DNA from: Lentisphaerota bacterium
GTDB lineage: Bacteria; Verrucomicrobiota; Kiritimatiellia; UBA8416; JAIOPI01
NCBI GenBank assembly: GCA_021413965.1
Contig: JAIOPI010000019.1
Span: forward strand, 68,585 to 132,584
Reading direction: 5' to 3'
DNA length: 64,000 bases
A model generated the notes under the pieces. That model saw only the letters and a program-made list of their open reading frames with translations. It was not told where the DNA came from and did no database searches. Below, in pieces: positions 11,233 through 38,879 of this stretch. Positions within the stretch are counted from its first letter, which is position 1. Each line of letters begins with the position of its first letter. The position numbers and the translations under genes are program-made.

Positions 11233-11294
11233 GCAGACTCCTCCACTTCTTCTCGGCCGCACGGTCCTGCGCGCCTGATGTAATCTCCGCCCGT

Positions 11295-12635
11295 TCATGG
11301 CGTCGCGGCCTGCGCCGCCGGGGACGGCGGCACAGGCACCAGCTCATAAAGCGTGCGACTTTCCCGGTCGAACTGATAGTCCCGCTCCGGTACCATGGAG
11401 TACCGGTTGTTCAGGGCCAATTGCGTCCGCTCTTGCTCGAGTTGCTTCTCGCGCAGCAGTAGACGCAAGGCTTCCAGTTCCTGATTGATGACTTGTTTTG
11501 CGGCGAGAAGGCGCAGGAACTCGTGGGCTGTCGTCTCCTCGTCGAATTGACGGGAGACGCGACGTTCAAGTCCAGCCACGGGCGTGGAATCCTCGTCGGG
11601 ACCGGGGGTTGAACCCTGATGGGCGACTAGTTCATACAAGGTTTTGCTTTCGGTGTCGTACTGATATTTCTTGTCGGGTTCGACCGCGAAAGTCCCTTTT
11701 AGCCGTCCGTCCAAGACCAGCAGTTCGCGTTGCTTATCGCTGAGCAGTTGCGTCAGGACTCGCTGGGTTTCGTCCCCGGACTGCCGACGAGACGCCAGTG
11801 ACTCAAACTCCTGGGCAGCCTGATCTGAGGAAAATTGCAGGTGCGTTCGCCGTACGGCTCTTGCGCTGGCACCGGGGGACTCCATGGTATCCGGTGCATG
11901 GGGAGATGGTGGCTTCGACGTGGCGAAGGCGGGCGGATTGCGGTTTGCCTCGGCGATGGGTTGCGGCTGATCCGCTGCTGGTCTTTCAGCCAAAGTGCTC
12001 TTGGTGCTTGAGATGGTGTTGTACGGCTTGGCTCCTGCCGTTGACGGTGCGCTTGCGGGCAGAGGGCGACTTCCTCCCACGTTAGGCTGGCTGCTGGAGA
12101 CTGCGTTCTTAGCTGGTGCGGACGTGGGGTAGCTGGGTAGCGCCGCGGGGGCACCCGCGACTACCGTCGCAGGGATGCCGGCTGCGGTTGTGGCACCAGC
12201 CCCAGGCTGGGGGGTGCCGCCGCCGACCGTTGTTGAACGATTGGCGTTGAATGTCGTTCCCCTGCTGCTCGCAGGGGTCGAAAAGGACTGACTGTTTTGT
12301 GCGGCTGGCCGCACGGTAGTGGCATTGCGCTGATTAGTTTCAGATCCCCACAAGCGCCACCAAGACTTAGTGGACTTCCCGGTTGCGGCGTTACGGGTCG
12401 TTGATATCGCACTTGTGTCTGTGGAACGGACGCCAATCGCGGACGGCGTGTTCCGCGCGTCTCGCGTTAACGTGGGTCGGTTATCCTGACCTGAAGGACG
12501 CGTCACATAGGACGTGACGGGTTTCTGAGTTGGCATCCTGGCGTTGGAGGCCTTCCCAAAACCGCCCGGGTTGGCACATCCGACCAGCACACAGACAGAC
12601 GCGCACCGCAATCCCAACCTTAAAGCGCTCATCAT
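11295..12635 (-). CDS. Lipoprotein with a duplicated C-terminal domain, unknown function
   Basis: The N-terminus (LCASVCVLVGC region) has a lipobox ending at Cys20, so the protein is predicted to be lipid-anchored. Residues about 30-260 are low-complexity Ser/Thr/Ala/Pro-rich and probably disordered. The C-terminal third holds two copies of a domain of about 70 residues. Each copy has a Glu/Gln/Leu-rich helix (QEFESLASRRQ and HEFLRLLAAKQ) followed by a matching tail, YQYDTESKTLYELV and YQFDRESRTLYELV. No family is recognised. Its position directly ahead of tpsB suggests a role at the outer membrane for the TPS pair, which is an inference. The start is uncertain between two adjacent ATGs. Confidence 0.75.
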   Translation of the reverse strand: MMSALRLGLRCASVCVLVGCANPGGFGKASNARMPTQKPVTSYVTRPSGQDNRPTLTRDARNTPSAIGVRSTDTSAISTTRNAATGKSTKSWWRLWGSETNQRNATTVRPAAQNSQSFSTPASSRGTTFNANRSTTVGGGTPQPGAGATTAAGIPATVVAGAPAALPSYPTSAPAKNAVSSSQPNVGGSRPLPASAPSTAGAKPYNTISSTKSTLAERPAADQPQPIAEANRNPPAFATSKPPSPHAPDTMESPGASARAVRRTHLQFSSDQAAQEFESLASRRQSGDETQRVLTQLLSDKQRELLVLDGRLKGTFAVEPDKKYQYDTESKTLYELVAHQGSTPGPDEDSTPVAGLERRVSRQFDEETTAHEFLRLLAAKQVINQELEALRLLLREKQLEQERTQLALNNRYSMVPERDYQFDRESRTLYELVPVPPSPAAQAATP

Positions 12636-15321: not shown

Positions 15322-16212
15322 TTACCGCATAACTCCCAGTCCGCCGCCTTCCAGGATGGGCTTAAGCAGCGCGATCATAATGGGCACAATGCCCATGAGG
15401 ACGAACGCTGGCAAGATGAGCAGCAGGAGCGGGATCAGCAATTTTTGCTGGGCCTGCGTGCCGAGGCGTTCAGCCTGCTCGTAGCGCTCCAGGCGCATTT
15501 TCTCAGCTTGGGCTTCGAGGATATCCGCGACGCTGGCGCCCATCCGAACCGCCTGAACGAGGATGGCTGTAAACGAGAGGAGTTCGGGCATTTGCACGCG
15601 CGCCCCCAGACGCAGGAGGGCTTCCTGCTGGGACATTCCCAGTTGCACATCGCGACGTGCGATACGAAACTCATCCGTCAGTGGGCTCCGGTGGATGCGC
15701 GCCAGCACACGATCGATGGCCGCCCCGAGTTCCAGGCCCGCACTGGCGCAGAGCGAAAGAATATCCACGAAATAGGGCAGGTTGCGCCGGATCTGGGCGT
15801 GGCGGTCCTGGATGATCCCACTGAGCCACAGCTCGGGAAAGACCAGCGCAAAGAGCAGCGCCAGGAGGCGTAACCCCGGCGCGAATGGCGCGGTGGCAAA
15901 CCAAAGGACAGCGGCGGCGAGGAAGCGGAAAGCAAAGAACTCCTCGGCCGCGAGTTGCTCCTTGATTCCCGCAGCGTCCAGACGCCGTTCCAGCCATTGG
16001 CGATACTGCGGCCACATCAGGCTCGAAACCACGGGCACCAGGAGCCGCAGCACGGGCGCTGCATATGTGAACAGGGTCTTGTTCTCCGGTTGGTCGCCCT
16101 TCTTGCGCGGGGGTTGCGCGAGAATCGTGCGCACGCAAAGAAAGACCACGACGGCGGCCAGTCCGGCTCCGGTGAATGTCATGGCATCAAGCATATGCGT
16201 TTGAAATCCCAT
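15322..16212 (-). CDS. tadC: TadC-like pilus assembly inner-membrane protein
   Basis: The predicted protein has 296 residues and several hydrophobic helices. A T2SSF/GspF-type domain fills the C-terminal half (about 125-285), with YFVDILSLCASAGLELGAAI, MSQQEALLRLG and a terminal hydrophobic pair. TadC forms the inner-membrane platform of the Tad pilus with TadB and receives force from the TadA ATPase. It sits 20 nt after tadB, the usual tadBC arrangement. The start could also be one of the ATGs at 16194 or 16182. Confidence 0.88.
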   Translation of the reverse strand: MGFQTHMLDAMTFTGAGLAAVVVFLCVRTILAQPPRKKGDQPENKTLFTYAAPVLRLLVPVVSSLMWPQYRQWLERRLDAAGIKEQLAAEEFFAFRFLAAAVLWFATAPFAPGLRLLALLFALVFPELWLSGIIQDRHAQIRRNLPYFVDILSLCASAGLELGAAIDRVLARIHRSPLTDEFRIARRDVQLGMSQQEALLRLGARVQMPELLSFTAILVQAVRMGASVADILEAQAEKMRLERYEQAERLGTQAQQKLLIPLLLLILPAFVLMGIVPIMIALLKPILEGGGLGVMR

Positions 16213-16232: not shown

Positions 16233-17060
16233 CTACACCTTCACGTCCGACATGCGCTGAATAGCGAGCAGTCCCAGAATATTGAGCACAGCACCTGCAA
16301 CGATCAGCGACAGGCCCAAGTTGGAGTCAAGAAGGCTCCGGACGCCTTCGGGATTGATAAAATACCGGCCCACAAGCAATAGGACCGGCAGCGCGGCAAT
16401 GACATACCCTTGCGTGCGGCCCTCAGATGTCATCGTGCGGATCCGATCTGCGACGCGCTCCCTATCGCGAATGGACGTGACCAGTTTATCCAGGACGGCG
16501 ACCAAATCGCCGCCGGTCCGCAGCGTGACCAGGATCGCGGTCACAAAGATGGTGACACTTTCGGAATCCATGCGTTCGCCCAAGCTCTCCATTGCGTCTT
16601 CCAGCGACGCGCCCAGATCTCGTTCGCGCTGAATCATCCCAAACTCCTCCCGGGCGGGCGAGGGCATTTCGTTGGCGACGATCTCGATCGTCTGGCTGAT
16701 GTTGAACCCGGCGTGCAACGAGTTGGTCATCAGGATCAGGAGGTCCACGAACTGCCGCAGGAAGAGGCGCCGTCGGCGCCACTGGGCGGCGCCGACCGCC
16801 CAGCCGGGAAACTGCCACACGAGGAAGGCGGCCAACGCGGCCAGCAAGAGGCTGCCGGTCATGGCCCAGCAGAGCAGGGCGATCCCGGCGCATCCCAGGA
16901 GCAGGAACCGGACGATGCGCCCGGCGGGGATCGTTATGCGCTGCCGATCCAAGTCCTTTGACACGCGCGTGGCCGTGGCGTAAAGGTGCGACCGCACGCG
17001 GGGGGCCAACAGAAGCACACCACCCGCGACGACCAGGCTGAAGCAGAAGTCGAGCCACAT
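16233..17060 (-). CDS. tadB: TadB-like pilus assembly inner-membrane protein
   Basis: The predicted 275-residue protein has an N-terminal membrane helix, paired central helices, and a T2SSF domain (about 95-235) with LLILMTNSLHAGFNISQTIE and GDLVAVLDKLVTSIRDRERV, typical of TadB. It forms the Tad platform together with the tadC product. It is unusual in being separated from tadA by about 8 kb of Rhs, TPR and secreted-repeat genes. A non-coding gap with palindromes precedes it, so it may have its own promoter. Confidence 0.88.
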   Translation of the reverse strand: MWLDFCFSLVVAGGVLLLAPRVRSHLYATATRVSKDLDRQRITIPAGRIVRFLLLGCAGIALLCWAMTGSLLLAALAAFLVWQFPGWAVGAAQWRRRRLFLRQFVDLLILMTNSLHAGFNISQTIEIVANEMPSPAREEFGMIQRERDLGASLEDAMESLGERMDSESVTIFVTAILVTLRTGGDLVAVLDKLVTSIRDRERVADRIRTMTSEGRTQGYVIAALPVLLLVGRYFINPEGVRSLLDSNLGLSLIVAGAVLNILGLLAIQRMSDVKV

Positions 17061-17354: not shown

Positions 17355-19109
17355 CTAACGCCCAACGCTCCGCAAGATCACCCGCCACTGAGCGGAGGCG
17401 CTTTGGATGACCTGATTCCCCGCCGCGGCGCTGTCATGAATCTGCTTCAGGTAGCCCGCCGTGTCGGGGAGCCGGGCCACGTCGGCGGGCCGCACCACGT
17501 CAAACTGAACGACTGGCCAGGGGAGTGGTAGGTTTTGAATGGGGTCGGGCCAGAGCACAACCGAGATTGTAGCCTCTGGGGCTGTATTGATCCGGTTGCA
17601 ACAACACGCAATCAGTACTGAACCCATGTAAACGGCGTCGGTCAGTTCTGCCACGGGTGGTGGACTGATGGGGGGGGCGGCGTTCCACGTCAGCAGGGGG
17701 GGCCACAAAGGCGGCAACTGTGCGATGGACGGCAGAACAATGGTCTGAACCAGATTATTGACGCTGTCGGCGGCCAACCGCACGCCCTCCAATGCCAGAT
17801 CGGAAACAATTTCGAATCCGGCGCGAACGGCGGCATCCCTTGCATCCAGCACGAGCTTGTCAATCATGGCGCTGGGATCTTCGACAAATTCCGCCAGCCA
17901 CACGATCAGGGCTTCCATATCAGGCAACCCCAGACTATCGATCAGCTCCGATGCATCAACCGAAAAGGCGAGCCCCAGCGATCCCCCGATCCCGATGGAA
18001 ACACCGGCGCCCAGTTCGAACTCGATCATGCCATCGAATCCAACGCGCACGACAGCCGAACCGTAGGCCATGGCACCGGCGTGACCCTCGGCCGTGACGG
18101 TAACGTTTGTTTTGATGCCAAAAATGTGAGCTTCAAAATCCAGTTCCACTTCGGCGCTGACGTAGGCCCCGGCGCGCGCATCGACCCCCAAGGTTAACCC
18201 CGTCTCATCGAGATGCGCCTCTATTGTGCCTTTGGCCCCGATCAGCGCTTCGACTTTTCCCTTCAGTTGCGCGCTGGCACCCACATCCTCGTTGCCGGCG
18301 CTCAGCCGTTCCGAGGCGGCCTCCAGTTCAGCCGCGAGACCAACCTGTCCTTCGAGCGTCACATCTGCCGAGCCCTCGCCAATCTTGATCGTGGCATCTC
18401 CGCTTGCACCGGCCTGCACGTTGCCGGCCACCATGCTGCCATTCGCTCCCGTCTGGCTGAACGCCTGAGACGCGCCAACCTCGGTATGCACATTAGCTTC
18501 CGCCCCGTCCTTGTCAGCGGTCACAGTGCCCGTGGCATTGCCAGCCTCGAACTCGGCGTTTAAGGTCTGTTTGTTCAGATCGACATCGGCGGTTCCCTTC
18601 GCATCCGGACTGGCAACATCAAGGTGCACCGTCCCCTCGGCAAGGTTGGCCGTCCCGTCGGCACGGGCCTGCCCCGCCTGCACGCTGGCTTCGACCGTGT
18701 CGCTATTGAGATCGGCGTGTACGTTGCCCTTGGTATCGCCTGCTTCAAGGCGCCCCGCGATCGTTTGCTCATTGAGGTTGAGATCAGCGGACCCACTCAC
18801 GTCGCGATTCGCGGCATCGACGTGCATGGTCTCGTCAGCAAGACTGGCGCTAGCATTGACGCTCGCCGGCCCTGATTTCGCCCGGGCATCCATAGTGCCG
18901 GACGCGAGATCAGCTTGAGCGGCCCCGGAAACTCCCGGTTGCTCCACGACCACACGGAGCGGCTCAGCCGCGCGTGCGACCGGACAGAAAAAGCTGCCCG
19001 GTAAGCCCGCGTACACAAAGCCCGAAACCAGCAACGGAACGACGTACCGATTGGCGCGGCGAATGGCCGCCAGGGGTGAGCTTGCGATGGATAGGAAGCG
19101 CGCCTTCAT
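17355..19109 (-). CDS. Secreted repeat protein of unknown function
   Basis: The predicted 584-residue protein has a long N-terminal signal region ending VARAAEP. Residues about 60-210 are Ala/Asp/Gly/Asn-rich imperfect repeats, for example MHVDAANRDVSGSADLNLNE against VHLDVASPDAKGTADVDLNK. The middle (about 230-370) is glycine-rich and alternates hydrophobic residues, suggesting beta structure. The last 200 residues contain helices and a Cys triplet (IACCCN). No family is recognised. The ATG overlaps the stop of the TPR gene by 4 nt (ATGA), so translation is probably coupled to it and to the Rhs gene upstream. Confidence 0.7.
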   Translation of the reverse strand: MKARFLSIASSPLAAIRRANRYVVPLLVSGFVYAGLPGSFFCPVARAAEPLRVVVEQPGVSGAAQADLASGTMDARAKSGPASVNASASLADETMHVDAANRDVSGSADLNLNEQTIAGRLEAGDTKGNVHADLNSDTVEASVQAGQARADGTANLAEGTVHLDVASPDAKGTADVDLNKQTLNAEFEAGNATGTVTADKDGAEANVHTEVGASQAFSQTGANGSMVAGNVQAGASGDATIKIGEGSADVTLEGQVGLAAELEAASERLSAGNEDVGASAQLKGKVEALIGAKGTIEAHLDETGLTLGVDARAGAYVSAEVELDFEAHIFGIKTNVTVTAEGHAGAMAYGSAVVRVGFDGMIEFELGAGVSIGIGGSLGLAFSVDASELIDSLGLPDMEALIVWLAEFVEDPSAMIDKLVLDARDAAVRAGFEIVSDLALEGVRLAADSVNNLVQTIVLPSIAQLPPLWPPLLTWNAAPPISPPPVAELTDAVYMGSVLIACCCNRINTAPEATISVVLWPDPIQNLPLPWPVVQFDVVRPADVARLPDTAGYLKQIHDSAAAGNQVIQSASAQWRVILRSVGR

Positions 19110-20458
19110 TTCGTCTCCTTTCCATTCCAGCCCGGATCGCCGCCGGCGGCGATGGTTTCCAAATCCTGAATGAACGTGCGGGCCCGGATGGACGCCTCGC
19201 TCGTGCCGGTGCCGACCGCCACCAGGAGGCGCACCCCCCGCTCATAGTCCGCCTTGCTCACCACGAGTGCGCGGCCCAGGTTGTAGCGGGCGTCCGGATA
19301 GTAGGGGTTGGCGGCAACGGCTTTGGCAAAGTACGAGAGTGCGGCCTGAGTGTCGTCCTGTTTGGCGGCCAGGATGCCCAAATTGTTCAGGGCTTCGGCG
19401 TACTGGGGCGCCTGCTTCAGCGCCTTCTTGTAGCTGGTTTCGGCAGCTTTCAAATCGTCAAGGCGTTCCTCGCAGGCCCCGCGCACAAACCAGTTCTCCG
19501 CGCGGCCAGGTTGATCGGCCGTCGCCTTCAGGGCGATGACGAGGGCCTCCTTGGCCAGCCCCTGCTGGAGCAGCACCGCCGCCAGATCGTGCCGTGCCAT
19601 GGCGTCGTCCGGATAGGTCTTCACAAGGGACTCCAGAATGTCCTGCGCGGCTTTGGCGTTGCCTGTGGCGGCTTCGAGCCGGGCCTTTTGCAGCAGGGCC
19701 TCCGGCAGGCCGGGTGTCTTGTCCAAAACCTCGTCCAGCGTCTTGCCGGCCTTGTCGTTCACGCCGCGCGCCATCAACCGGGAGGCCACCAGGACCTTGG
19801 CCTGCGGGTCGTCCCCGGAGACCCTGATCAGCGTCTCCCAGACGTGATCCTCCTGCTCGGACATGCCGGCGAGATAGTAGAGCCGTGCGAGCATCAGAAG
19901 CGTCTCGCGGTTCAGGGGTTCAAGCTGCAGGCTTGTTCCCAGGTACTGGGCGGCCAACTTGAGATTGCCGGCATCGATCAGCAATTCCGCCAGGTTGTTC
20001 AAGGGCAGTGCCGACTTCGGATCCGCCTTGACTGCTTCTATAAACGCGGCTTGGGCCTCTTCGATCCGGCCCTGCTTGAGAAGTGCCGCACCCAGGTTAT
20101 TACGGGCAAGGGCATGGCTCGGTTCGGCAGCCAACGCCTGCCGGTAGCGCCGCTCGGCTTCTTCCGGATTCAGTTGCAGCATGAACACGTTGCCGGAGTT
20201 GTTGGCGGCCGCGGCCAGCAGCTTGCGCCCATCAGGGGAATCGATGTTCTCCACCGCCTGGATGGCGCTCCCGAAGGCATCCTGTGCGTGGTCGTACTTG
20301 CCCTGGTCCAGCATGCTTAGCCCCTTCGTGTAGATTTCCGCGGCGGGTTTCAGCGCCTCTGGCATGTTCGTGATGCTCCCGTTGTCCTGCGCCCACAACA
20401 CCCCCGCCCGCAGCGCGAGCAAAAGCACAACCGCCCAAGCAATTTTCGAGTTTCTCAT
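19106..20458 (-). CDS. Secreted TPR-repeat protein
   Basis: The predicted protein has 450 residues from the ATG at 20458, which has AAGGAG 11 nt upstream; an in-frame extension to 20512 would overlap the Rhs gene. A Sec signal (ending VLWAQD) is followed by about ten TPR motifs covering most of the chain, such as NNLGAALLKQGRIEEAQAAF and EALNNLGILAAKQDDTQAAL. TPR arrays scaffold protein complexes in the periplasm. It could stand in for TadD, the TPR lipoprotein of Tad systems, though it is longer and lacks an obvious lipobox. It starts 37 nt after the Rhs gene and overlaps the next gene by 4 nt. Confidence 0.8.
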   Translation of the reverse strand: MRNSKIAWAVVLLLALRAGVLWAQDNGSITNMPEALKPAAEIYTKGLSMLDQGKYDHAQDAFGSAIQAVENIDSPDGRKLLAAAANNSGNVFMLQLNPEEAERRYRQALAAEPSHALARNNLGAALLKQGRIEEAQAAFIEAVKADPKSALPLNNLAELLIDAGNLKLAAQYLGTSLQLEPLNRETLLMLARLYYLAGMSEQEDHVWETLIRVSGDDPQAKVLVASRLMARGVNDKAGKTLDEVLDKTPGLPEALLQKARLEAATGNAKAAQDILESLVKTYPDDAMARHDLAAVLLQQGLAKEALVIALKATADQPGRAENWFVRGACEERLDDLKAAETSYKKALKQAPQYAEALNNLGILAAKQDDTQAALSYFAKAVAANPYYPDARYNLGRALVVSKADYERGVRLLVAVGTGTSEASIRARTFIQDLETIAAGGDPGWNGKETK

Positions 20459-20495
20459 CGCGCGTTGACTCCTTGGTTGCCACTCAACACACACG

Positions 20496-23400
20496 TCACT
20501 TTCCGGCTCCATAAATCACCGCCCGCCCTTCGGCGGCCGCCTTCTCCACGGCGTCCCGCCCCGTCGTGGCGGATTTCTCGGCAGATTCGCGCCCGCTCCG
20601 GGCCGAGTCTTCAATAGCCTTCCGCGCCCCGTTCGTGTCGATTGTCGGTGGCGGCTCGTTTGGCTTGCCGTCGCCATCCGGATCATAGCCCGGCCAGTCC
20701 GGATCGGCCCAATTCTGAATGCCATCGTTGTCCAAGTCGTTGTCGACTAAATCGGGAGCGCCATCCCGATCCACGTCGGCGCCGAACAGCCCCCCGGGGA
20801 TCGCCCCTGCGTCCGGCGCTTTGCCCAACGTTTGCGGCGGCCCATAGTACGCGACCGTGCTGTCCGACATCCCGGAATAGTGGCCCACCGAACCCGCTGG
20901 TGGGCCACTAATACCATTACGTATGCCGGTGCCGATCCAAGTGGCGACTGACTCTATGTACGCCTTACCAGACAAAATTGCGTTTTTTACATTTGCGCCA
21001 TGCACAGTAGTGCTTCTACCTGATGCCACCTCATAGGAATACAAAAGAAGAGAAACAGGTACGCCCGTGCTCTTTCCAATAGCAGTCGGAATAAAATTCA
21101 ACAACGCGGCAGCAATGCCGCAGGTAACGTCCGTGGCCACATCCAACCCCAATGATACCACATCCATACTCCTGCTCAGTCCAACAGCCCAGCTCGGCGC
21201 ATTACCGTCTTTCATCGACCAGCTGAAATCTCTGATATCGTTGTGAATATCATCTATTGTCTCACCCGCAACATCGCCAATCATTGCACCAGTCTGGACA
21301 GCCTGCATGATGCCAAGAGGCATTTGAAATTCCGGTATGGCTTTTACATATTCCCGCGAATTTTCATATTCCTTCAAAAGACCTGCTGTGTTCTTGAGTA
21401 TTCCTAATGCTCGAACACTCATTAGACCTGAGGGATCCACAAAGTTGACTGAATCATTGGCGCAGTACGCATACTGATTTGGCCCCTGACTCAGTCCCAC
21501 TGGATCCTTGGTCAGGAAGCGTCCGGCATTGGGATTAAAGAACCGCGCCCGATAGAAATAACTGCCGGCCGTACCGTCCCATTCCCGGCCCGTATACCGG
21601 TATGGGTTTTCAACCGTGCTCGCAGTCTCCTTCGGCGTCCCAAACGCGTCGTATGTGTAGTGCGCGACTTGGGCGCCCTGCGCATCCGTCAGCCCCGTGA
21701 TGCTGCCCAATCCGTCCGCCTGGTAAAACGTTGTCGCGTCGCCGCGCGTTTGCGCCAGCGGCTCATCGATGCCCGGCCCGTGCAGGTACGACGCGGACTG
21801 GGCGTTCCCGGATATTTCCGCAATCACGGCTTCCTGATCGAAGAGGAAGCGCGTGGCGGGCTTGTCCGCCTCGGCCCGGCTTACCCGCGCGCCATTCGGC
21901 GCATACCCATACGTCGCGCTCCCCGACGGCCCCGACGCCGCAATCATCCGGTTGGCCGCGTCGTATTGATAGGTGTAGGCCGCCCCGTCAGCCGTGCTGC
22001 GCGACACGAGATTGCCGTCCGCATCGTAGGCAAAACTCGCGGCGCCGGCCTTCAGCAGCTGGTTGTCCTTGCCGGTGGCATAGTCGGCCTTCACGCCGTT
22101 GGCCGTCTCCACGACCCGGTTGCCCACGGCGTCGTACGCGTATGCCGTCACGTTGGTGCCCTCGGCCACGGTCGTCAGGCGCCCCAGCGCGTCGTACGTA
22201 TATTGCGTGACCTTGTCTGCGCCTTCGGTCATGCGCGTGCGGTTGCCCAGAAGATCATAGACGTACTGATACCGCGCGAGTTCTTGTCCATCCTTGCCGG
22301 TCGCCCGCAGATCCGTCAGCCGATTCAGCTTGTCGTACGAGTAGGTGGTATTGACGCCGTTGGGATACAGCATGGCGCTGCGCCGGCCGAACTGGTCATA
22401 CTCGAACGCGACCTTACCCACCGCACTTTCGATGGCGCTTAGCCGTCCATGCGCGTCGTAGGCGTAGCGGACTGCATCGACCCCCGCCATCATCTTCACC
22501 CGGCGGCCGGCCGCGTCATACTCGTAGGACACCGGCGCCCCGATGATCCCGTCGGTCACTGTTTGCAACAGGCCGTCCGCGGTAAACGCGAACCGGTAAT
22601 CGCTGTCGCTGTCCTTCATCCCCACGAGCCGGCCCGCCGGATCGTAGGCAAAGGTCGCCGGATCGCCGTTCAGATCGGTCGCGATTAACCGGCCCTGCCG
22701 ATCATAGGAAAAGGCCGTCTTCTGACCGCGCCGGTTGGTCTGCGCCTGCAACTGCCCCTGGGCGTTGTACTGGGCCACTTTGGGCTTACCCAACGCGTCC
22801 ACTTCACTCAGCACCCGGCCGGCGGAATCGTAGGTCCACTGCGTGACATTGGCGATGGCGTCGGTCAGGGCCGTCGGGCGTCCCAACGGGTCGTATGCCA
22901 GACGGGTCACCGCGCCGAGCGGATCCTGCACCGCTGTCAGCAGCCCCGCGGCATCGTACTCCATGCCGGTTTCATTCCCCGCCGGATCTACAACCTTGAT
23001 TACCTGGCCTAGGCCGTCCCGCACGAGGTAGGCCCGCTGTCCTTCCGAGTTCTCCACCCCGGTCAACCGGTCCAGCGGATCGTACTGGTATCGGATCTGC
23101 ACCCCCGTGGGCGTGGTCACCCCACGCAGGATCCCCAATAGCGTAAAATCGTACCCCATCTGCTGACCGTCTGCCGTGGTCACCGAGCGCACGTGTCCGT
23201 TGGCGTCATAGGCCAACGTCACCGCCTCTCCCGTGGCCCCCAAGACGCCCACCAGTTGCCCCAGGATGTTCCAAGTAAACTGCGTCCGGGCCCCACGCGC
23301 ATTTGAAACAGCCGTGACGTTCCGCCGCCCGTCGTAGGCCAGGCTGACGGACTCGCCGGTAGCTGCCGTCATGGTCTGCAGCGCATCGTCCGGCCCATAG

Positions 23401-24530
23401 GTAAACTGCGTCTGCGCGCTGTTGACGCCCACGGAGACCACGTTGGCATGCGCGTCATAGGCGATGGCTGCCGTGCGGCCATCCGCCCCAACGGCCTTTA
23501 CGGGTAGCTCGCGCTCGTTCAGCCAGATGGTTTCCTGCACCCCCGTGGGGTCCGTTACCGCCACTCGACCATCATCGTTCCCGTAAGCTGCATGCGACGT
23601 CGCCCGCAATGCGTCGGTGACGGCCACCTCCAGCCCCGCTTTGCCTTCATCATAGCGGTACTCCGCCAGCCGTGCGCGGCGCCCCTCAATCACACGATAC
23701 TGCGCAGCGATCCGTTCCCCTTTATACTGAATTTCGTAACGACTCCCGCCGGCGCCACGGATGTTGATCAGCCGGTGCGCCGCGTCATACTGGTACATCA
23801 CCACGCCCCCGGCCCGCGACTGGAACGCCGTCAGGTTCTGCTGCGTGTCGTAGCCGTACAGGCACATGCGACCGGCGCAATCCAGCATCCGGATGGCCCG
23901 GCCATCCGAATTCAACCAGAGCGTGATGCTTCGACCGTAACGGTCTTCCAGGCGAATCGTCTTCTCGGCGCCTGTCTCCGCGCGCGTAATCGTCAGGTGT
24001 CGGCCGTTGCGGTCCCGAATCTCCGTCAACCGGTAGGTATGATCGAAGTGGTACGTCACCCCGGTTTTGAGCTCTCGCACGAACCCGTCCCCTTCGGGAC
24101 GGATCGTCTCGTAGTCATACTTTTCCGACACAAAGCGCCCGTCGGGCTGAAGCCGATATTGGCGGTTCCGGCCGGCTTCATCCACCAGGCTGGCCTTCTC
24201 CGGTCCGGGCGTCACCGCCATATCCAGCACGGAGTGCCACTTCCATCCGAACACCCCCGGTTGCGGAACCGCCATCCCGCTGCGATAGGCGCGGCTCACC
24301 GCCAGCGGCAGCGAGTCGATCCCCACGCGTAGATCTTCGCTCCCCAGCACCAGCTCGCCCGTACGCAAATCGACCGGCAACGGCTGGCCGGCGGCCGTGT
24401 CATGAGGGTTCGCACTGCCGGCAACGGCCGCCCAGACCCCCATCGGCATCGTTTGAAAGAACAGAACAACCGAAAGCAGTCCGGAAAGGATGCGGGTGCT
24501 GCTTCCATACGATTTCATTCGCATTTCCAT
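20496..24530 (-). CDS. Secreted Rhs/YD-repeat protein with divergent C-terminal region
   Basis: The predicted protein has 1,344 residues. The N-terminal signal region (about 15-37) is followed by a DUF6531-like start (GQPLPVDLRTGELVLGSEDL). A long YD-repeat shell with dozens of YDAxGR motifs extends to about residue 970. The Rhs core closes with YTGREWDGTAGSYFYRARFF, then GRFLTKDPVGL and FVDPSGLM (about 975-1037). The variable tip after this (about 1038-1230) is encoded by clearly AT-richer DNA and matches no toxin family I recognise. It is followed by an Asp-rich thrombospondin-3-like segment (DVDRDGAPDLVDNDLDNDG, about 1247-1293) and a charged helical tail. YD shells usually encapsulate a C-terminal effector. 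No small immunity-type gene follows. The Sec signal suggests envelope or surface export rather than a type VI route. Confidence 0.88.
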   Translation of the reverse strand: MEMRMKSYGSSTRILSGLLSVVLFFQTMPMGVWAAVAGSANPHDTAAGQPLPVDLRTGELVLGSEDLRVGIDSLPLAVSRAYRSGMAVPQPGVFGWKWHSVLDMAVTPGPEKASLVDEAGRNRQYRLQPDGRFVSEKYDYETIRPEGDGFVRELKTGVTYHFDHTYRLTEIRDRNGRHLTITRAETGAEKTIRLEDRYGRSITLWLNSDGRAIRMLDCAGRMCLYGYDTQQNLTAFQSRAGGVVMYQYDAAHRLINIRGAGGSRYEIQYKGERIAAQYRVIEGRRARLAEYRYDEGKAGLEVAVTDALRATSHAAYGNDDGRVAVTDPTGVQETIWLNERELPVKAVGADGRTAAIAYDAHANVVSVGVNSAQTQFTYGPDDALQTMTAATGESVSLAYDGRRNVTAVSNARGARTQFTWNILGQLVGVLGATGEAVTLAYDANGHVRSVTTADGQQMGYDFTLLGILRGVTTPTGVQIRYQYDPLDRLTGVENSEGQRAYLVRDGLGQVIKVVDPAGNETGMEYDAAGLLTAVQDPLGAVTRLAYDPLGRPTALTDAIANVTQWTYDSAGRVLSEVDALGKPKVAQYNAQGQLQAQTNRRGQKTAFSYDRQGRLIATDLNGDPATFAYDPAGRLVGMKDSDSDYRFAFTADGLLQTVTDGIIGAPVSYEYDAAGRRVKMMAGVDAVRYAYDAHGRLSAIESAVGKVAFEYDQFGRRSAMLYPNGVNTTYSYDKLNRLTDLRATGKDGQELARYQYVYDLLGNRTRMTEGADKVTQYTYDALGRLTTVAEGTNVTAYAYDAVGNRVVETANGVKADYATGKDNQLLKAGAASFAYDADGNLVSRSTADGAAYTYQYDAANRMIAASGPSGSATYGYAPNGARVSRAEADKPATRFLFDQEAVIAEISGNAQSASYLHGPGIDEPLAQTRGDATTFYQADGLGSITGLTDAQGAQVAHYTYDAFGTPKETASTVENPYRYTGREWDGTAGSYFYRARFFNPNAGRFLTKDPVGLSQGPNQYAYCANDSVNFVDPSGLMSVRALGILKNTAGLLKEYENSREYVKAIPEFQMPLGIMQAVQTGAMIGDVAGETIDDIHNDIRDFSWSMKDGNAPSWAVGLSRSMDVVSLGLDVATDVTCGIAAALLNFIPTAIGKSTGVPVSLLLYSYEVASGRSTTVHGANVKNAILSGKAYIESVATWIGTGIRNGISGPPAGSVGHYSGMSDSTVAYYGPPQTLGKAPDAGAIPGGLFGADVDRDGAPDLVDNDLDNDGIQNWADPDWPGYDPDGDGKPNEPPPTIDTNGARKAIEDSARSGRESAEKSATTGRDAVEKAAAEGRAVIYGAGK

Positions 24531-25030
24531 CTGGTGATCGTCGTCGTCGTAAACTTGAACGCGCGATTTTGCATACTATGAGGCACCGTCCTCAAGACCC
24601 ATCAACCGCAACTTTCGGGCCAACCCGTCAACGAGAATGGCGCGAGCGCAAACACCAAGCTGCTGCGTGCACTCTCCCAATGCACAGCCGCGCTCGCCAT
24701 CAACCCGACACCGCACCAAACAGAGGGCGAACCTGCGGCGAGCCGTCCGCGAGCCAGGGCCAAAGAAGCCCTCACAAGTGCAACACACGCTGGATGCTGC
24801 GGTCCTAATCGTGCTTCCCGCCAATGTCCAGAATCCACACCCGCCAGTTCGGATTCTGGACAGGCCCAACCGGTTGGCCGGTCGTTGAAACATCTGGCGG
24901 AGGTGACGCGCCCGCTCCCGACCCGCGGGAGGGCTGGCGGGGAACCCAGACCTCCATATCCCCGATTCGAGCTGTTTCCCTGGATGGCGCGGTGCCCCCC
25001 GCGCTGCATCAATGCGTTCTTCAATGGTTG
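24531..25030. other. 500-bp intergenic region between tadA-like and Rhs genes
   Basis: Short frames here lack ribosome sites and coding character, so I call no gene. It contains a perfect 11-bp inverted repeat, GTCCAGAATCC (24826-24836) and GGATTCTGGAC (24851-24861), with a 14-nt spacer and no T-run. The region probably carries the Rhs promoter near 24540-24600, where the DNA becomes AT-richer, but no convincing -35/-10 pair can be named. Confidence 0.5.
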
Positions 25031-26584
25031 CTAGCCTTCCAGCGCTTCCGTCGTGCCGCCGGCTTCATCCGCTGCCGCCGTGGCGGTGTGACGCGTTTCG
25101 GATCCTGGATGAACAACTGATTCCACTGAGCCAACCGGGGATGGCGGGGGCTTCGTGACGGGGTCCCCAATGGTTTGAGGACGCTCGTCATCGTCAGGAG
25201 AGGAAACAAAGAGCGAATCGTCGAGTTCGATGCCACGCCACCGGCGCAATTCATCGAGGAAACTCGGCTTGTAGCCCGTGGGTTTCAGTTGGCCACAAAC
25301 CCGGCCCTTGGCGTCCAGCCCTGTGGCCTCAAAAACATACACATCCCGGATCTGAACCTCCCCGCCCACCATGCCGGTGACTTCACATACGCGGGACAAT
25401 TTGCGCGTGCCATCGCGCTGGCGCTCGATCTGCACCACCACGCTCAGAGCGGAGGCGATGTTCTGGCGGATGACCGGGATCGGGATGTCGATCCCCATCA
25501 GCACGAGATTCTCCAGGCGCGTCAACATGTCGGCCGGGGTGTTGGCGTGAATGGTGGTCAGGGAGCCTTCATGCCCCGTATTCATGGCCTGCAGCATGTC
25601 CAGCGCTTCCGGCCCGCGACACTCGCCCACCACAATGCGATCCGGGCGCATGCGCAGGGCGTTGCGCACCAAGTCGCGGATGGTGACTTCCCCCTTGCCC
25701 TCCACATTCGGCTTGCGCGCTTCCAGCGTTACCAGGTCGATCTTCGAAAGCCGCAGTTCGGCGGCATCTTCGATAGTCACGATGCGCTCGGTGTCGGGGA
25801 TGAACGCAGAGAGAATATTCAACAGGGTGGTCTTGCCGGTGCCCGTGCCCCCGGAAACGATCACGCTCTTCTTGCCCTTGACGCAACCTTCCAAGAAGCG
25901 ATTCACCTGCGTTGTGCTGGAGCCCTTGCGGACCAGGTCGTCGCCAGTCATCGGGCGTTTGGAAAACTTGCGGATGGTGATGGTCGGCCCGTTCAGGGCC
26001 AGCGGGGGAACGATAATGTGCACGCGCGAGCCATCGCGCTCGAGTCGGGCATCGACGAATGGGCTGCTCTCGTCGACGCGCCGCCCCACCGGGGACACAA
26101 TCCGCTCGATCACATTGTGGACCTGCTGGGCCGATGCGAACCGGTGGTTGGTGAGTTCGATTTTTCCCGCTCGCTCCACAAATATCCGGTCGGGTCCGTT
26201 CACCATGATCTCGTCCACGGTCTCGTCCGCCAGGAGCGCCTCCAGCGGACCAAGGCCCAGCGCTTCGTCCAGAATCTCCTTGATGAATTGTTCGAGGTCG
26301 ACGAGGCCGTCGGCGAGGCCCTGGCGTTTGAGCTCGAAGCGGACGACTTCGTCCGTTCTCCGCCGCAACTCGCTGAGCCTGCGGCTGTCGTCCATGGCCT
26401 CGAGGTCCAGCCGCCGCAGTTCTTCGTTCTCGTGAATGAACGGCAACACCTTCTCTTTGATCTGACGGCGCCGATCCAATTCCTGCGCCTCGAGCGCACG
26501 GAGTTCGGCCTGCACATCCCGGGTGACATCATAGTAGACCGTTTCCCCGTGTGCGCGCTGCTGGAGATCCTCGCGAATGCCCAT
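25031..26584 (-). CDS. tadA: TadA/CpaF-type pilus assembly ATPase
   Basis: The predicted 517-residue protein is a cytoplasmic secretion ATPase of the VirB11/CpaF family that powers Tad pilus assembly. It shows the CpaF signature in order: LLADETVDEIMVNG, RIVSPVGRRVDESSPFVDAR, Walker A GGTGTGKTT (about 242-250), the Asp/His-box region IEDAAELRL, Walker B GECRGPEALDMLQAM, and GSLTTIHANTPADML. A Pro/Thr-rich tail of about 60 residues extends beyond the usual end of the family. No FHA domain is fused to it; the FHA domains are in separate proteins here. It is preceded by the secretin gene with a 128-nt palindrome-bearing gap. Confidence 0.93.
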   Translation of the reverse strand: MGIREDLQQRAHGETVYYDVTRDVQAELRALEAQELDRRRQIKEKVLPFIHENEELRRLDLEAMDDSRRLSELRRRTDEVVRFELKRQGLADGLVDLEQFIKEILDEALGLGPLEALLADETVDEIMVNGPDRIFVERAGKIELTNHRFASAQQVHNVIERIVSPVGRRVDESSPFVDARLERDGSRVHIIVPPLALNGPTITIRKFSKRPMTGDDLVRKGSSTTQVNRFLEGCVKGKKSVIVSGGTGTGKTTLLNILSAFIPDTERIVTIEDAAELRLSKIDLVTLEARKPNVEGKGEVTIRDLVRNALRMRPDRIVVGECRGPEALDMLQAMNTGHEGSLTTIHANTPADMLTRLENLVLMGIDIPIPVIRQNIASALSVVVQIERQRDGTRKLSRVCEVTGMVGGEVQIRDVYVFEATGLDAKGRVCGQLKPTGYKPSFLDELRRWRGIELDDSLFVSSPDDDERPQTIGDPVTKPPPSPVGSVESVVHPGSETRHTATAAADEAGGTTEALEG

Positions 26585-28233: not shown

Positions 28234-29076
28234 TTACTGAACAACATCGTCCGGCCCTGGCTGTCCCGAGGGCCAAATGGTCTTGCCTCCGGCACCGAAC
28301 AGGACCCCGCTTTCGATCTTCGTCCGCTCCTCCATGAGCGGAACATACGGATGTTCCACCACATTCGTACGATAGCGCAGAATACATCGCAGATGGGCGA
28401 TCTGCGCGGCCAGGCTCAGCTTCCACGCTTCATCCGCCCCGACATCCAGTGTCACCAGCGAGGTGCCCTTGCCGCCATTCGATGGCGACTCCGTCTTGAG
28501 CAGCCGCCCGCCCGAAGCGCCGGCCGCCGGCAGTTCCGAGAGCCGGTCGTCCACGGCCAGCACCTTCACGGCCTGGACCAGGACCATGGCGTGATTCCCG
28601 GCGCCGGCGTCCGCCCCCGACTCGGACTCGAAGACGCCAATGATATCGACCACGTCGCCGGGCCGGAGCAGGCCCGCCAGGGCCCCTTCGCCATCCATCT
28701 TCAGCGTGATGGCCCGGCGGTCCGGCTCGGTCCTGATTCGCAGCGACAGCAAGCCCCCCTCCTCCGCCATAAGTTTGGTGTCCAGCACCTGCTCGCCACT
28801 ACGGATGGGCGTCTGGACGGTACGTCCCAGCGCAAACTCTATGCCGACCAACGCACCGGGTTGCATGAATTTCGCCGGGACTTTGGCGTCCATCTGAACA
28901 TCGTCTTTCTCCAGAACCGTTCCTGGCAGGAGATCCTTCACCGCGACCACCACATTGGTCATCTGCCCGTAGTCGCGCAGCACCTCGGTCTTGATGTTGC
29001 GCACCTTGGCCGCGAAGAGCGCAAACGCCAGCACGGCACACCCCAGAGCCAGGAGAAACGTCTGATTCTTGCTCAT
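28234..29076 (-). CDS. cpaB: CpaB/RcpC-type Tad pilus assembly protein
   Basis: The predicted 280-residue protein has an N-terminal membrane anchor (FLLALGCAVLAFALFA). An SAF domain follows (about 45-105; VAVKDLLPGTVLEKDDVQM, KFMQPGALVGIEFALGRTV), then the RcpC/CpaB domain with LLRPGDVVDIIGVFES. CpaB is a periplasmic partner of the secretin. It ends 69 nt before cpaC and begins 29 nt after the second TadE-like gene. Confidence 0.9.
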   Translation of the reverse strand: MSKNQTFLLALGCAVLAFALFAAKVRNIKTEVLRDYGQMTNVVVAVKDLLPGTVLEKDDVQMDAKVPAKFMQPGALVGIEFALGRTVQTPIRSGEQVLDTKLMAEEGGLLSLRIRTEPDRRAITLKMDGEGALAGLLRPGDVVDIIGVFESESGADAGAGNHAMVLVQAVKVLAVDDRLSELPAAGASGGRLLKTESPSNGGKGTSLVTLDVGADEAWKLSLAAQIAHLRCILRYRTNVVEHPYVPLMEERTKIESGVLFGAGGKTIWPSGQPGPDDVVQ

Positions 29077-31051: not shown

Positions 31052-31291
31052 TCACTTCAGCCCTAGCAATTCCATGAACTTGTCGAGCGCCCCTTGCATG
31101 ATCGCCTTCACCCCGTCATTGACTGTCGCGGCGGTTCCGAGTATTGCGCCCAACACCACCAGCGTGATGGCGATCATGGACACCAAGTTCACCTCTCCCC
31201 GCTTCTCGGTGACTACCCGGTGAACTTCCTCGGAAACCCACACAGCGATCCGCAGGCCCACTTGCTGCATCTTGTTTACCAACGTCTTCAT
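31052..31291 (-). CDS. Flp-type major pilin candidate
   Basis: The predicted protein has 79 residues, the usual size for Flp pilins. A charged leader-like half (residues 1-33) ends KRGEVNLVSMIAITLVVLG, running into one hydrophobic helix that carries a Glu near its start. A short amphipathic tail follows (ALDKFMELLGLK). The Gly-Glu step in KRGE is the likely prepilin cleavage region. It lacks the usual EYGLIA core, so the match rests on size, topology and position at the head of the tad genes. GAGGAG lies 9 nt before the ATG. A sigma54 promoter lies about 75 bp upstream, making this the first gene of the transcript. Confidence 0.72.
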   Translation of the reverse strand: MKTLVNKMQQVGLRIAVWVSEEVHRVVTEKRGEVNLVSMIAITLVVLGAILGTAATVNDGVKAIMQGALDKFMELLGLK

Positions 31292-31366
31292 GTTTCCCGT
31301 CTCCTCTGCTTTCCTGTCGTTTACCGATATTCGGCTGTGCGGCTTCAGTCTCTATCGCACGCTACC

Positions 31367-31381
31367 GCAAAAGGCGTGCCA
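31367..31381 (-). promoter_or_regulatory. Sigma54 (-24/-12) promoter of the flp/tad genes
   Basis: On the minus strand the sequence is TGGCACGCCTTTTGC, a perfect match to the sigma54 consensus TGGCACG-N4-TTGC with correct GG-to-GC spacing. Transcription should start near 31355, about 64 nt before the pilin ATG at 31291. The divergent-risk reading on the plus strand is meaningless. The adjacent gene encodes a sigma54-dependent activator, which strongly supports the assignment. Confidence 0.88.
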
Positions 31382-31639
31382 ACGCCGAAGGGGGGCGTTA
31401 TCCGCGGGAAACCTCAGGAATTGGGCGTGATCGCCGGGGAGCAACGTTGTGGTTGTGTCTGGGGCCTGGACACCTCGTGCCCGGAAAGTGAACACTCGCG
31501 GTATGGACGCACTTCATAAGCCCACCGACGTACGCACGCGATCTGACGCCGCAACGTAGGTTGATCATCATCGACATTGATCACGCCGGCAAGTCCGAAC
31601 TGATAAATAGTTATCGGAATCAAGCCGGTACCAAGGCCC

Positions 31640-31835: not shown

Positions 31836-33662
31836 TTAAAACTCGGCTGGATTCCGCAGTTTCTCGTAGAGCGTGGTGCGGCTGATCCCAAGGCGTTCGG
31901 CGGCTAACTTCTTGTTGCCCGCGCACTCCTGCAGGACGCGCCGAATATGGTGGTGTTCCACCCCTCTCAAGTCACCGGCGGGCGATTCCAAGACTTCCGC
32001 CGCCGGTTCGCACGGCGCGCAAGCCATGATGATCTCCGGCGGCAGGTCGTCCAGTTTCAGTTCTGGGCCTGACGTCAGGACGAGACACCGCTCCACGACG
32101 TTGCGCACTTCGCGCACGTTTCCCGGCCAGGGGTAGGTGCACAACGCCTGCATGGCCTCCGGCGACACTCTCCGAACGTCCGTCGCAACACTGCGCCGCA
32201 AATCGCCGACGAAGAAATCCACTAGGTCGGGAATATCCTCGGTGCGCGCGCGCAATGCCGGGAGTCGGACTTCGATCACCTTCAGCCGGAAATAGAGATC
32301 CTCACGAAAGGCACCCTCCTTGACCGCAGCCTCCAAGTCGCGATTGGTGGCCGCAATGACTCGCACATCCACCTTAATCTGTTTATTGCCGCCGACCCGC
32401 ATGAATTCCTGCTCCTGCAGCACGCGCAACAGCTTCACTTGCATGACTAGGGACAACTCGCCGATCTCGTCGAGGAAAATGGTTCCGCCATCGGCATCCT
32501 CGAATAGCCCGCGGCGGGCGGTCACCGCGCCCGTAAACGCCCCCTTTTCGTGCCCGAAGAGGGTGCTGCCCAGCAAGTTTTCCTCGATGGCACTACTGTG
32601 CACGGGAATAAACGGGCCGTCCCGACGCGGGCTTTCGCCGACAATGAGGCGCGCAAAGAGTTCTTTCCCGGTACCGGACTCGCCGCGCAGCAGAATCGTG
32701 GCGTCCGTGCGGGCCGCGCGCATGGTGGTCGCCATGCAGGCCTGCAAGGCCTTGCTGCGCCCGATAATCTCCGCGGATGGGGCCGCCGGAATAGCGGTCG
32801 CCCTGGCGCTGGACGTGGCGTGCAGAGCCAGTCCCATACCGAGCGCTTCCGCGGCCAGGCGCACGACATCCATCGGCTCAGGATCGAGGGGCTCCGTGCC
32901 TTCGACATAAAGCGCCCCCCGTGGGCGGCCCGCCATCAGCACGGCGTGGCAAGCTGCATCGTCGGCTTCTGCCGCGCCAGCGCCACGGTCGCGGACCGGC
33001 GTGTCACCGGCGGCCACGGCGCGCAGCAGGTCTTCCGAGAAGGGCGTGCCGGAACGGCTGCGGGGGTCGCCGCGCTTGATCCAGCGCTCCGTATGGCCGC
33101 AAACGCCCGGGGCAAGGTAGAGCACCACCCGCCTCACATTGCAGAGCCCCGCCAGATCGGACACGACCTGTTCCGCCACGGCCCCGGTCTGGTGCGCATG
33201 CGCGGCATTGAACGCGCGCATAATCTGCCAACCGTGCAGCGTCGGGTCGCTGCCGCGTTTTCGACGCTCGGATGCCGGCTGACAGATGGTGGCGCCATCC
33301 GGTATAATCCCGTCCGCGGCACTCCTCGCCGGGAGGGAATCGATGGCGGGCTGTTCGGGGGCGGCCAGTTCGTCTGCCAAGTTGAACACCAGTTCGACGT
33401 TGCCAATAGCAATGCGGTCGCCGTCGCGCAGCAGCCGCCGGCATATCGCAATGCCATTGACACGGGTCCCGTTGCGGCTGTTGTGATCGACCAGTACGTA
33501 GCCCTCAGGTCGGGATTCAATCGAAGCATGCTCGCGCGAAAGGTTGCGGTCGTTCAGGCAAAGTTCGCAAGCCTGTGCGCGTCCGATGCGGATGCGCCTG
33601 GCGTCGAGACGCAAGGGGCTGACTCCCGCCTGGTCGAGGCGCATGAGAAGGCCGATCGACAT
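31836..33662 (-). CDS. FHA-domain sigma54-dependent transcriptional activator
   Basis: The predicted protein has 608 residues from the ATG at 33662 (GGGAG 5-6 nt upstream), preferred to an ATG 51 nt earlier. The N-terminus is an FHA domain (about 12-95; RIGRAQACELCL, LSREHASIE, SRNGTRVNG). A GAF-like region follows (about 125-295). The AAA+ sigma54-interaction domain (about 310-545) has Walker A GESGTGKE, the GAFTGA loop required for sigma54 contact, Walker B GGTIFLDEIGEL and arginine-finger region FREDLYFRL. A Fis-type helix-turn-helix (GNKKLAAERLGISRTTLYEK) closes it. There is no receiver domain, so control is probably through phosphothreonine binding by the FHA domain. The likely target is the sigma54 promoter of the pilin gene directly downstream. 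Confidence 0.93.
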   Translation of the reverse strand: MSIGLLMRLDQAGVSPLRLDARRIRIGRAQACELCLNDRNLSREHASIESRPEGYVLVDHNSRNGTRVNGIAICRRLLRDGDRIAIGNVELVFNLADELAAPEQPAIDSLPARSAADGIIPDGATICQPASERRKRGSDPTLHGWQIMRAFNAAHAHQTGAVAEQVVSDLAGLCNVRRVVLYLAPGVCGHTERWIKRGDPRSRSGTPFSEDLLRAVAAGDTPVRDRGAGAAEADDAACHAVLMAGRPRGALYVEGTEPLDPEPMDVVRLAAEALGMGLALHATSSARATAIPAAPSAEIIGRSKALQACMATTMRAARTDATILLRGESGTGKELFARLIVGESPRRDGPFIPVHSSAIEENLLGSTLFGHEKGAFTGAVTARRGLFEDADGGTIFLDEIGELSLVMQVKLLRVLQEQEFMRVGGNKQIKVDVRVIAATNRDLEAAVKEGAFREDLYFRLKVIEVRLPALRARTEDIPDLVDFFVGDLRRSVATDVRRVSPEAMQALCTYPWPGNVREVRNVVERCLVLTSGPELKLDDLPPEIIMACAPCEPAAEVLESPAGDLRGVEHHHIRRVLQECAGNKKLAAERLGISRTTLYEKLRNPAEF

Positions 33663-33840
33663 GTTGCTCCCATTTGCCGCGATGCGGCACCAACCTGGGC
33701 TAACGCCCTCCATCGATGGGCCATCATTTCCAGAAGGCCGGAAACAGAATCATCAGCGAGGGGGCAGCCCTAAATGCACCACCTGAACAAGAAATACACG
33801 CCCGATGCGGATCATCAAGCCCAAAACGAAGAAACGCGAG

Positions 33841-38811: not shown

Positions 38812-38879
38812 TTCCAAAGCCAGGCGTTCAACAGGCCGGACAACCGTCGCGTCAGAGGAAGGCGACGCGGACGATGGCG

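What the first reader, a model, noticed from the sequence alone, without database searches (positions are those of the whole stretch)
17355..24530. Rhs/TPR/repeat-protein island splits the tad genes
tadA and tadB are normally adjacent, but here three coupled genes (gaps of 37 nt and a 4-nt overlap) lie between them on the same strand. The Rhs protein carries a Sec signal, its variable tip is encoded by distinctly AT-rich DNA (about 20930-21420), and no immunity-sized gene follows. Either the tip is not a toxin, the TPR or repeat protein has an accessory or immunity role, or the island was recently acquired.
Basis: partly seen in the sequence, partly recalled or inferred. Interest (0 to 1): 0.6.

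Follow-up and report, generated by a model that had tools for sequence, protein, structure and literature searches.

The report
Rhs gene added to Tad-pilus operon
Between two genes of a bacterial pilus machine sit an old, inherited pair of accessory genes and one later arrival, a toxin-like 'Rhs' shell protein with a foreign tip, which appears to be switched on together with the pilus and so may be a contact weapon or surface factor tied to it.

Summary
The three genes exist as described, but they are not one island. The TPR gene and the repeat-protein gene (called REP here) form an older cassette. They lie in the same order between tadA and tadB in two genomes of another family of the class, and beside Tad genes at other positions in further genomes. 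Those loci have no Rhs gene at this place.

Only the Rhs gene is specific to this genome. Its core has host-like codon usage. The foreign DNA is codons ~1010-1210, starting at the conserved DPxGL region, and a host-like 134-residue tail follows it. That looks like a tip swap, not a newly arrived whole gene.

The Rhs gene has a good sigma-54 (-24/-12) site 78 nt before its start. The pilin gene has one at 77 nt, and a sigma-54 activator gene with an FHA domain lies beside the pilin gene. Pilin-linked sites and the activator recur in the two Rhs-less relatives. I infer that Rhs is co-expressed with the pilus.

No immunity gene is visible; TPR and REP are unlikely candidates, because they occur without Rhs. 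The tip has no recognised relative and its fold prediction failed, so toxicity is unproven. Best reading: a Sec-exported Rhs effector or surface protein recruited into a Tad regulon.

The parts
31366..31382 (-). sigma-54-like -24/-12 site TTGGCACGCCTTTTGCG upstream of the Flp pilin gene
   Evidence: score 14.4 of 15.6; -12 GC 77 nt before the pilin ATG
31052..31291 (-). Flp-type major pilin (79 aa)
   Evidence: pilins at the same place in G049 and G095
31836..33713 (-). FHA-domain sigma-54 activator (enhancer-binding protein), proposed regulator of pilin and Rhs promoters
   Evidence: Pfam FHA, Sigma54_activat, HTH_8; full-length relatives in G049 and G095, not in the two same-genus genomes tested
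28234..29076 (-). RcpC/CpaB
   Evidence: Pfam PF16976
26713..28164 (-). RcpA-type secretin
   Evidence: Pfam PF00263, BON
25031..26584 (-). tadA ATPase
   Evidence: 61% identical to TadA of G049
24607..24623 (-). sigma-54-like -24/-12 site TTGGCCCGAAAGTTGCG upstream of Rhs
   Evidence: score 14.2, third best of 64 kb; about 2 sites of this strength expected by chance in the whole window on both strands
20496..24530 (-). Rhs/YD-repeat protein: Sec signal, DUF6531, YD core, Rhs_assc_core ending DPVGL...DPSGL, tip
20900..21503 (-). AT-rich, atypical-codon segment of Rhs (about codons 1010-1210), swapped tip
   Evidence: no relative found
20496..20899 (-). host-like C-terminal tail of Rhs: Asp-rich thrombospondin-type-3-like repeats plus amphipathic helix
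19106..20512 (-). TPR protein (Sec-type signal, no lipobox), first gene of the TPR-REP cassette
17355..19109 (-). REP protein: Sec-type N-terminus, beta-rich conserved middle (about residues 250-410), second gene of the cassette
16233..17060 (-). tadB
   Evidence: Pfam T2SSF; 41% identical to TadB of G049
15322..16212 (-). tadC
   Evidence: Pfam T2SSF

Best explanation
The locus is a Tad (type IVc) pilus operon of a subtype that carries its own two-gene accessory cassette. TPR is a Sec-exported TPR protein, probably a periplasmic assembly partner in the role of a pilotin. REP is a Sec-exported, beta-rich surface or pilus-associated protein. In this lineage an Rhs gene was inserted between tadA and TPR, together with or beside a sigma-54 promoter matching the pilin promoter, so the FHA-containing activator would turn on pilin and Rhs together (inferred). 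Rhs is exported by Sec, folds as a YD-repeat shell, and by analogy with other Rhs proteins cuts itself at the DPxGL motif to free its tip (motif seen, cleavage inferred). The tip was exchanged later by recombination at the conserved core end, leaving an older host-like tail behind (composition break shown by codon usage; mechanism inferred). Most likely the protein is a contact-dependent effector or surface factor used when the Tad pilus is made. The toxic step is inferred, not shown.
For: Order secretin-tadA-TPR-REP-tadB without Rhs in G049 and G095. TadA of the window groups with theirs at 100/100 support, apart from the Tad systems of its own genus and order. The TPR-REP pair keeps its order at other positions beside Tad genes in f38/f48 genomes. 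Only the tip has foreign codon usage. Sigma-54 sites lie upstream of Rhs and of the pilin at 77-78 nt, with pilin-linked sites in both relatives. The activator gene sits beside the pilin, has full-length relatives in exactly those two of the four genomes tested, and rpoN is present. The Rhs core matches solved toxin-encapsulating Rhs shells. A Tad pilus that kills on contact has been demonstrated in Myxococcus (PMC8460266, PMC12075869).
Against: The tip matches no toxin family and its model is unusable (pLDDT 39). No immunity gene. No outer-membrane route for Rhs identified. Promoters are predictions; the Rhs site was first spotted by eye, then scored. Only one genome with the Rhs insertion was found, so tip swapping between strains could not be observed.
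Confidence: 0.5

Rival explanations
1. Rhs here is not a weapon but a secreted surface or adhesin protein: the YD shell displays a calcium-binding (thrombospondin-type-3-like) tail, strengthening the adhesion role of the Tad pilus.
For: Asp-rich TSP3-like repeats and an amphipathic helix in the host-like tail; no toxin family in the tip; no immunity gene.
Against: The core carries the intact DPxGL...DPxGL ending typical of toxin-releasing Rhs, the AT-rich tip with foreign codons is the pattern of toxin-tip exchange, and TSP_3 is far below the Pfam cut-off (11.8 vs 25 bits).
Confidence: 0.3
2. The Rhs gene is a passenger: an Rhs element landed in the operon by chance and is neutral, with transcription provided incidentally.
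For: Rhs genes are common in the class (43 of 334 genomes at E<=1e-40) and the best other copies examined have no Tad neighbour within 1.5 kb; none of the other genomes with the cassette shows Rhs at this place.
Against: Intact 1344-codon frame, same strand, 37-nt coupling to TPR, host-like codon usage of the core implying long residence, and a dedicated sigma-54-like site at the same spacing as the pilin's.
Confidence: 0.15
3. TPR or REP is an immunity or chaperone partner dedicated to Rhs and came in with it as one island.
For: Tight gene coupling Rhs-TPR-REP.
Against: TPR-REP occurs in nine other genomes, mostly on contigs with Tad genes, with no Rhs at the locus.
Confidence: 0.05

Closest known systems
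Kil system of Myxococcus xanthus (Tad-like apparatus for contact-dependent prey killing; PMC8460266, PMC12075869)
   Same: A Tad pilus operon tied to cell-contact function; Tad pili there are customised by variable tip proteins.
   Different: Kil tips are TadE/F/G-like minor pilins, not Rhs; the 2025 paper's main text mentions neither Rhs nor TPR. Killing is not shown here.
Rhs/YD-repeat polymorphic toxins (WapA-type Sec-exported and T6SS Rhs)
   Same: DUF6531, YD repeats, Rhs_assc_core, DPxGL ending, atypical tip; core similar to PDB 7q97 and 8h8b.
   Different: No immunity gene; tip family unknown; host-like tail after the tip; located in a Tad operon with a sigma-54-like site.
TadD pilotin of Tad systems (P. 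aeruginosa RcpA-TadD; PMC10499894)
   Same: TPR protein in the tad locus with an export signal; PilW-like hit below cut-off.
   Different: 468 aa, no lipobox here or in G049 (one is present in G095, LGAC), and paired with REP.

Membership tests
Tad (type IVc) pilus system | TadA-type ATPase, two T2SSF platform proteins, secretin, RcpC, Flp pilin in one cluster | tested here: met
Tad (type IVc) pilus system | tadA and tadB adjacent (usual, not obligatory, order) | tested here: not met
   Three genes between them here, two in G049/G095; a variant order, not grounds for exclusion
Rhs/YD-repeat polymorphic toxin | YD-repeat shell with Rhs_assc_core and DPxGL core end | tested here: met
Rhs/YD-repeat polymorphic toxin | C-terminal tip belongs to a toxin family | tested here: inconclusive
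   No Pfam, NCBIfam or PADLOC hit; AF2 pLDDT 39
Rhs/YD-repeat polymorphic toxin | Immunity gene directly downstream (toxin-immunity order, PMC3482391) | tested here: not met
   Next genes are TPR and REP, which exist without Rhs
Rhs/YD-repeat polymorphic toxin | Tip exchanged between related strains | tested here: inconclusive
   Tip composition is foreign to the gene but no second strain with this Rhs was found
TadD pilotin | Lipoprotein with TPR repeats | tested here: not met
   TPR yes, lipobox absent in the window protein; function as secretin partner not testable
Kil-type killing Tad pilus | Contact-dependent killing | not testable with these tools
   Needs cells

The most novel reading that the evidence does not exclude
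A Tad pilus has recruited an Rhs toxin-shell protein as a co-regulated, swappable effector, with the conserved TPR-REP pair as a new Tad-accessory export or display module: a Tad-linked delivery system distinct from T6SS and CDI.
Probability: 0.15. Interest if true: 0.8.

Novelty: new variant of a known kind. Interest (0 to 1): 0.42.

Why it matters
Tad pili are now known to kill on contact in predatory bacteria, with swappable tips, but no Rhs protein had been tied to a Tad operon in the papers I could search. A Tad operon with an Rhs gene and a matching promoter gives a testable link between pilus contact and toxin-shell proteins. The TPR-REP cassette adds an unnamed accessory pair to Tad biology in an uncultured class.

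Tried and rejected
Rfam scan of 8-45 kb found only a tRNA. REP profile against PDB sequences: no hit. Foldseek of the REP model gave only weak matches, largely outer-membrane barrels, best E 0.03; taken as 'beta meander', no more. Tip against 346 class genomes: only TSP3-like repeats in unrelated proteins; AT-rich part of the tip against plasmids: none. REP domain in plasmids: none. The intergenic gaps are not mobile-element copies and share no repeats beyond 11 nt with each other. The palindrome TGTCCAGAATCC...GGATTCTGGACA (24825-24862) was considered as an activator site, but no second copy lies near the pilin. Phylum-wide search with the REP profile added no genome outside the class.

Full report
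Observation. The minus-strand order Flp pilin, RcpC, secretin, tadA, Rhs, TPR, repeat protein (REP), tadB, tadC, FHA protein is real. Coordinates and coupling match the finding. The Rhs protein has a Sec-type N-terminus, DUF6531, 12 RHS-repeat stretches, an Rhs_assc_core and a DPVGL...DPSGL core end followed by a 308-residue tip.

The AT-rich tip. GC3 falls from about 0.8 in the core to 0.40-0.60 in codons 1001-1200 and returns to 0.70-0.73 after codon 1201. Scored against the codon usage of nine neighbouring genes, windows starting at codons 1009-1153 lie at -1.40 to -1.57 per codon; the neighbours average -1.04 with SD 0.105 and a minimum of -1.29. The rest of Rhs is normal. The foreign segment therefore begins in the conserved core end, about 23 residues before the last DPxGL, and ends 134 codons before the stop. 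The simplest reading is a tip exchange by recombination in the conserved core end that left an older tail in place. The tail is rich in thrombospondin-type-3-like Asp repeats (below the Pfam cut-off) and ends in an amphipathic helix, the only part of the tip that AlphaFold2 modelled with any confidence.

What is old and what is new. A search of 95 relatives found one clear REP relative, in G049, another family of the class. There the order is secretin, tadA, TPR, REP, tadB, with no Rhs. TPR is 40% identical over 426 residues, TadA 61%, TadB 41%. A class-wide search with a two-row profile found REP in 10 of 346 genomes including this one. In G095 the order is again tadA, TPR, REP, tadB without Rhs. 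In f38 and f48 genomes TPR-REP lies after a TadG-like pilin gene and upstream of the RcpC-secretin-tadA block, or directly before a tadA-like gene. The pair keeps its order in every locus where the contig shows it. None of these loci shows Rhs beside the pair, as far as the contigs reach. A TadA tree puts the window with G049 and G095 at 100/100, apart from the Tad systems of its own genus and order, including another Tad system of the same genome. Same-genus genomes gave only that other Tad type, and their completeness is 73-76%, so true absence of this type there is not certain. So TPR and REP are an old accessory cassette of a Tad subtype, and only Rhs is added. The gaps on both sides of the block (500 and 294 nt) are also peculiar to this genome.

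Rhs in the class. Rhs cores are frequent (43 of 334 genomes at E<=1e-40), at most 38% identical to this one in the best matches, and none of the best 29 other loci has a Tad gene within the 1.5 kb flanks. The tip has no relative in the class beyond TSP3-like repeats in other proteins, and its AT-rich part has none on plasmids. The own genome has one other Rhs_assc_core gene on another contig.

Regulation. A scan for the sigma-54 consensus with GG and GC fixed gave TTGGCACGCCTTTTGCG 77 nt before the pilin ATG and TTGGCCCGAAAGTTGCG 78 nt before the Rhs ATG. They are two of the three best sites in 64 kb; about 2.3 sites scoring at least 13.9 are expected by chance on both strands of the whole window. 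The remaining one of the three lies inside a gene. Sites of 13.6 and 14.1 lie about 84 and 92 nt before the pilin genes of G049 and G095. The gene next to the pilin, 31836-33713, encodes FHA, Sigma54_activat and HTH_8 domains. Its full-length relatives were found in G049 and G095, whereas the two same-genus genomes matched only the general AAA+ part. RpoN is present in G000, G049 and G095. Co-regulation of pilin and Rhs is a well-grounded prediction, not a demonstration; the Rhs site was noticed by eye before it was scored.

TPR and REP. TPR carries a Sec-type signal without lipobox in this genome and G049; G095 has a lipobox. A pilotin role like TadD (PMC10499894) is the natural guess, but the lipoprotein criterion is not met. 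REP has no Pfam, NCBIfam or PDB sequence relative. Its conserved middle (about residues 250-410) is predicted as a long antiparallel beta meander, with the last four strands at about pLDDT 70-87; Foldseek gives only weak barrel-like matches.

Mechanism and rivals. The committed reading is a Sec-exported Rhs effector or surface factor recruited into the Tad regulon, used at cell contact. Contact-dependent killing by a Tad pilus with variable tips is established in Myxococcus (PMC8460266, PMC12075869), but there the tips are minor pilins and the paper's main text does not mention Rhs. The absence of an immunity gene counts against a kin-directed polymorphic toxin, which normally has the toxin-immunity gene order (PMC3482391). 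It does not exclude a toxin aimed at other species. The adhesin reading remains a serious rival because of the TSP3-like tail and the unknown tip.

Verdict. 'Recently changed tip on an added Rhs gene' is supported, and 'tip is not a toxin' stays open.

Noticed in passing
window 9211-11298 and 11295-12635 (-): An outer-membrane ShlB/FhaC-type transporter gene (POTRA_2 + ShlB) overlaps by 4 nt with an unknown upstream gene at the end of the Tad cluster; its two-partner substrate is not obvious, and it is not seen in the stretches read around the G049/G095 clusters. It could be an outer-membrane route for Rhs or REP.
   Followed up: partly
window 33841-38817 and 38880-41315 (-): A 1658-aa protein with a Ser/Thr protein kinase domain and a PP2C phosphatase lie upstream of the FHA-type sigma-54 activator, suggesting phospho-control of FHA proteins in this Tad cluster.
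   Followed up: no
window 24825-24862: Perfect 12-bp palindrome arms TGTCCAGAATCC / GGATTCTGGACA in the tadA-Rhs gap, about 215 nt upstream of the sigma-54-like site; possible activator site or terminator.
   Followed up: partly
L105 (G000:C24:32500-52400), L106, L109: The same genome holds four further TadA-family loci, two within about 55 kb on the same contig, one of them with an in-frame TGA.
   Followed up: partly
L020, L021, L024, L025 REP C-termini; L005, L019 REP C-termini: REP relatives end in a conserved short motif (YKR...WSK after a Gly-rich stretch, or F-W-P-rich ...WPSL), possibly a sorting or docking signal.
   Followed up: no
L034 667-8067 (+) (G000:C37): Second Rhs_assc_core gene of the genome, open frame 2466 aa, on another contig.
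   Followed up: no
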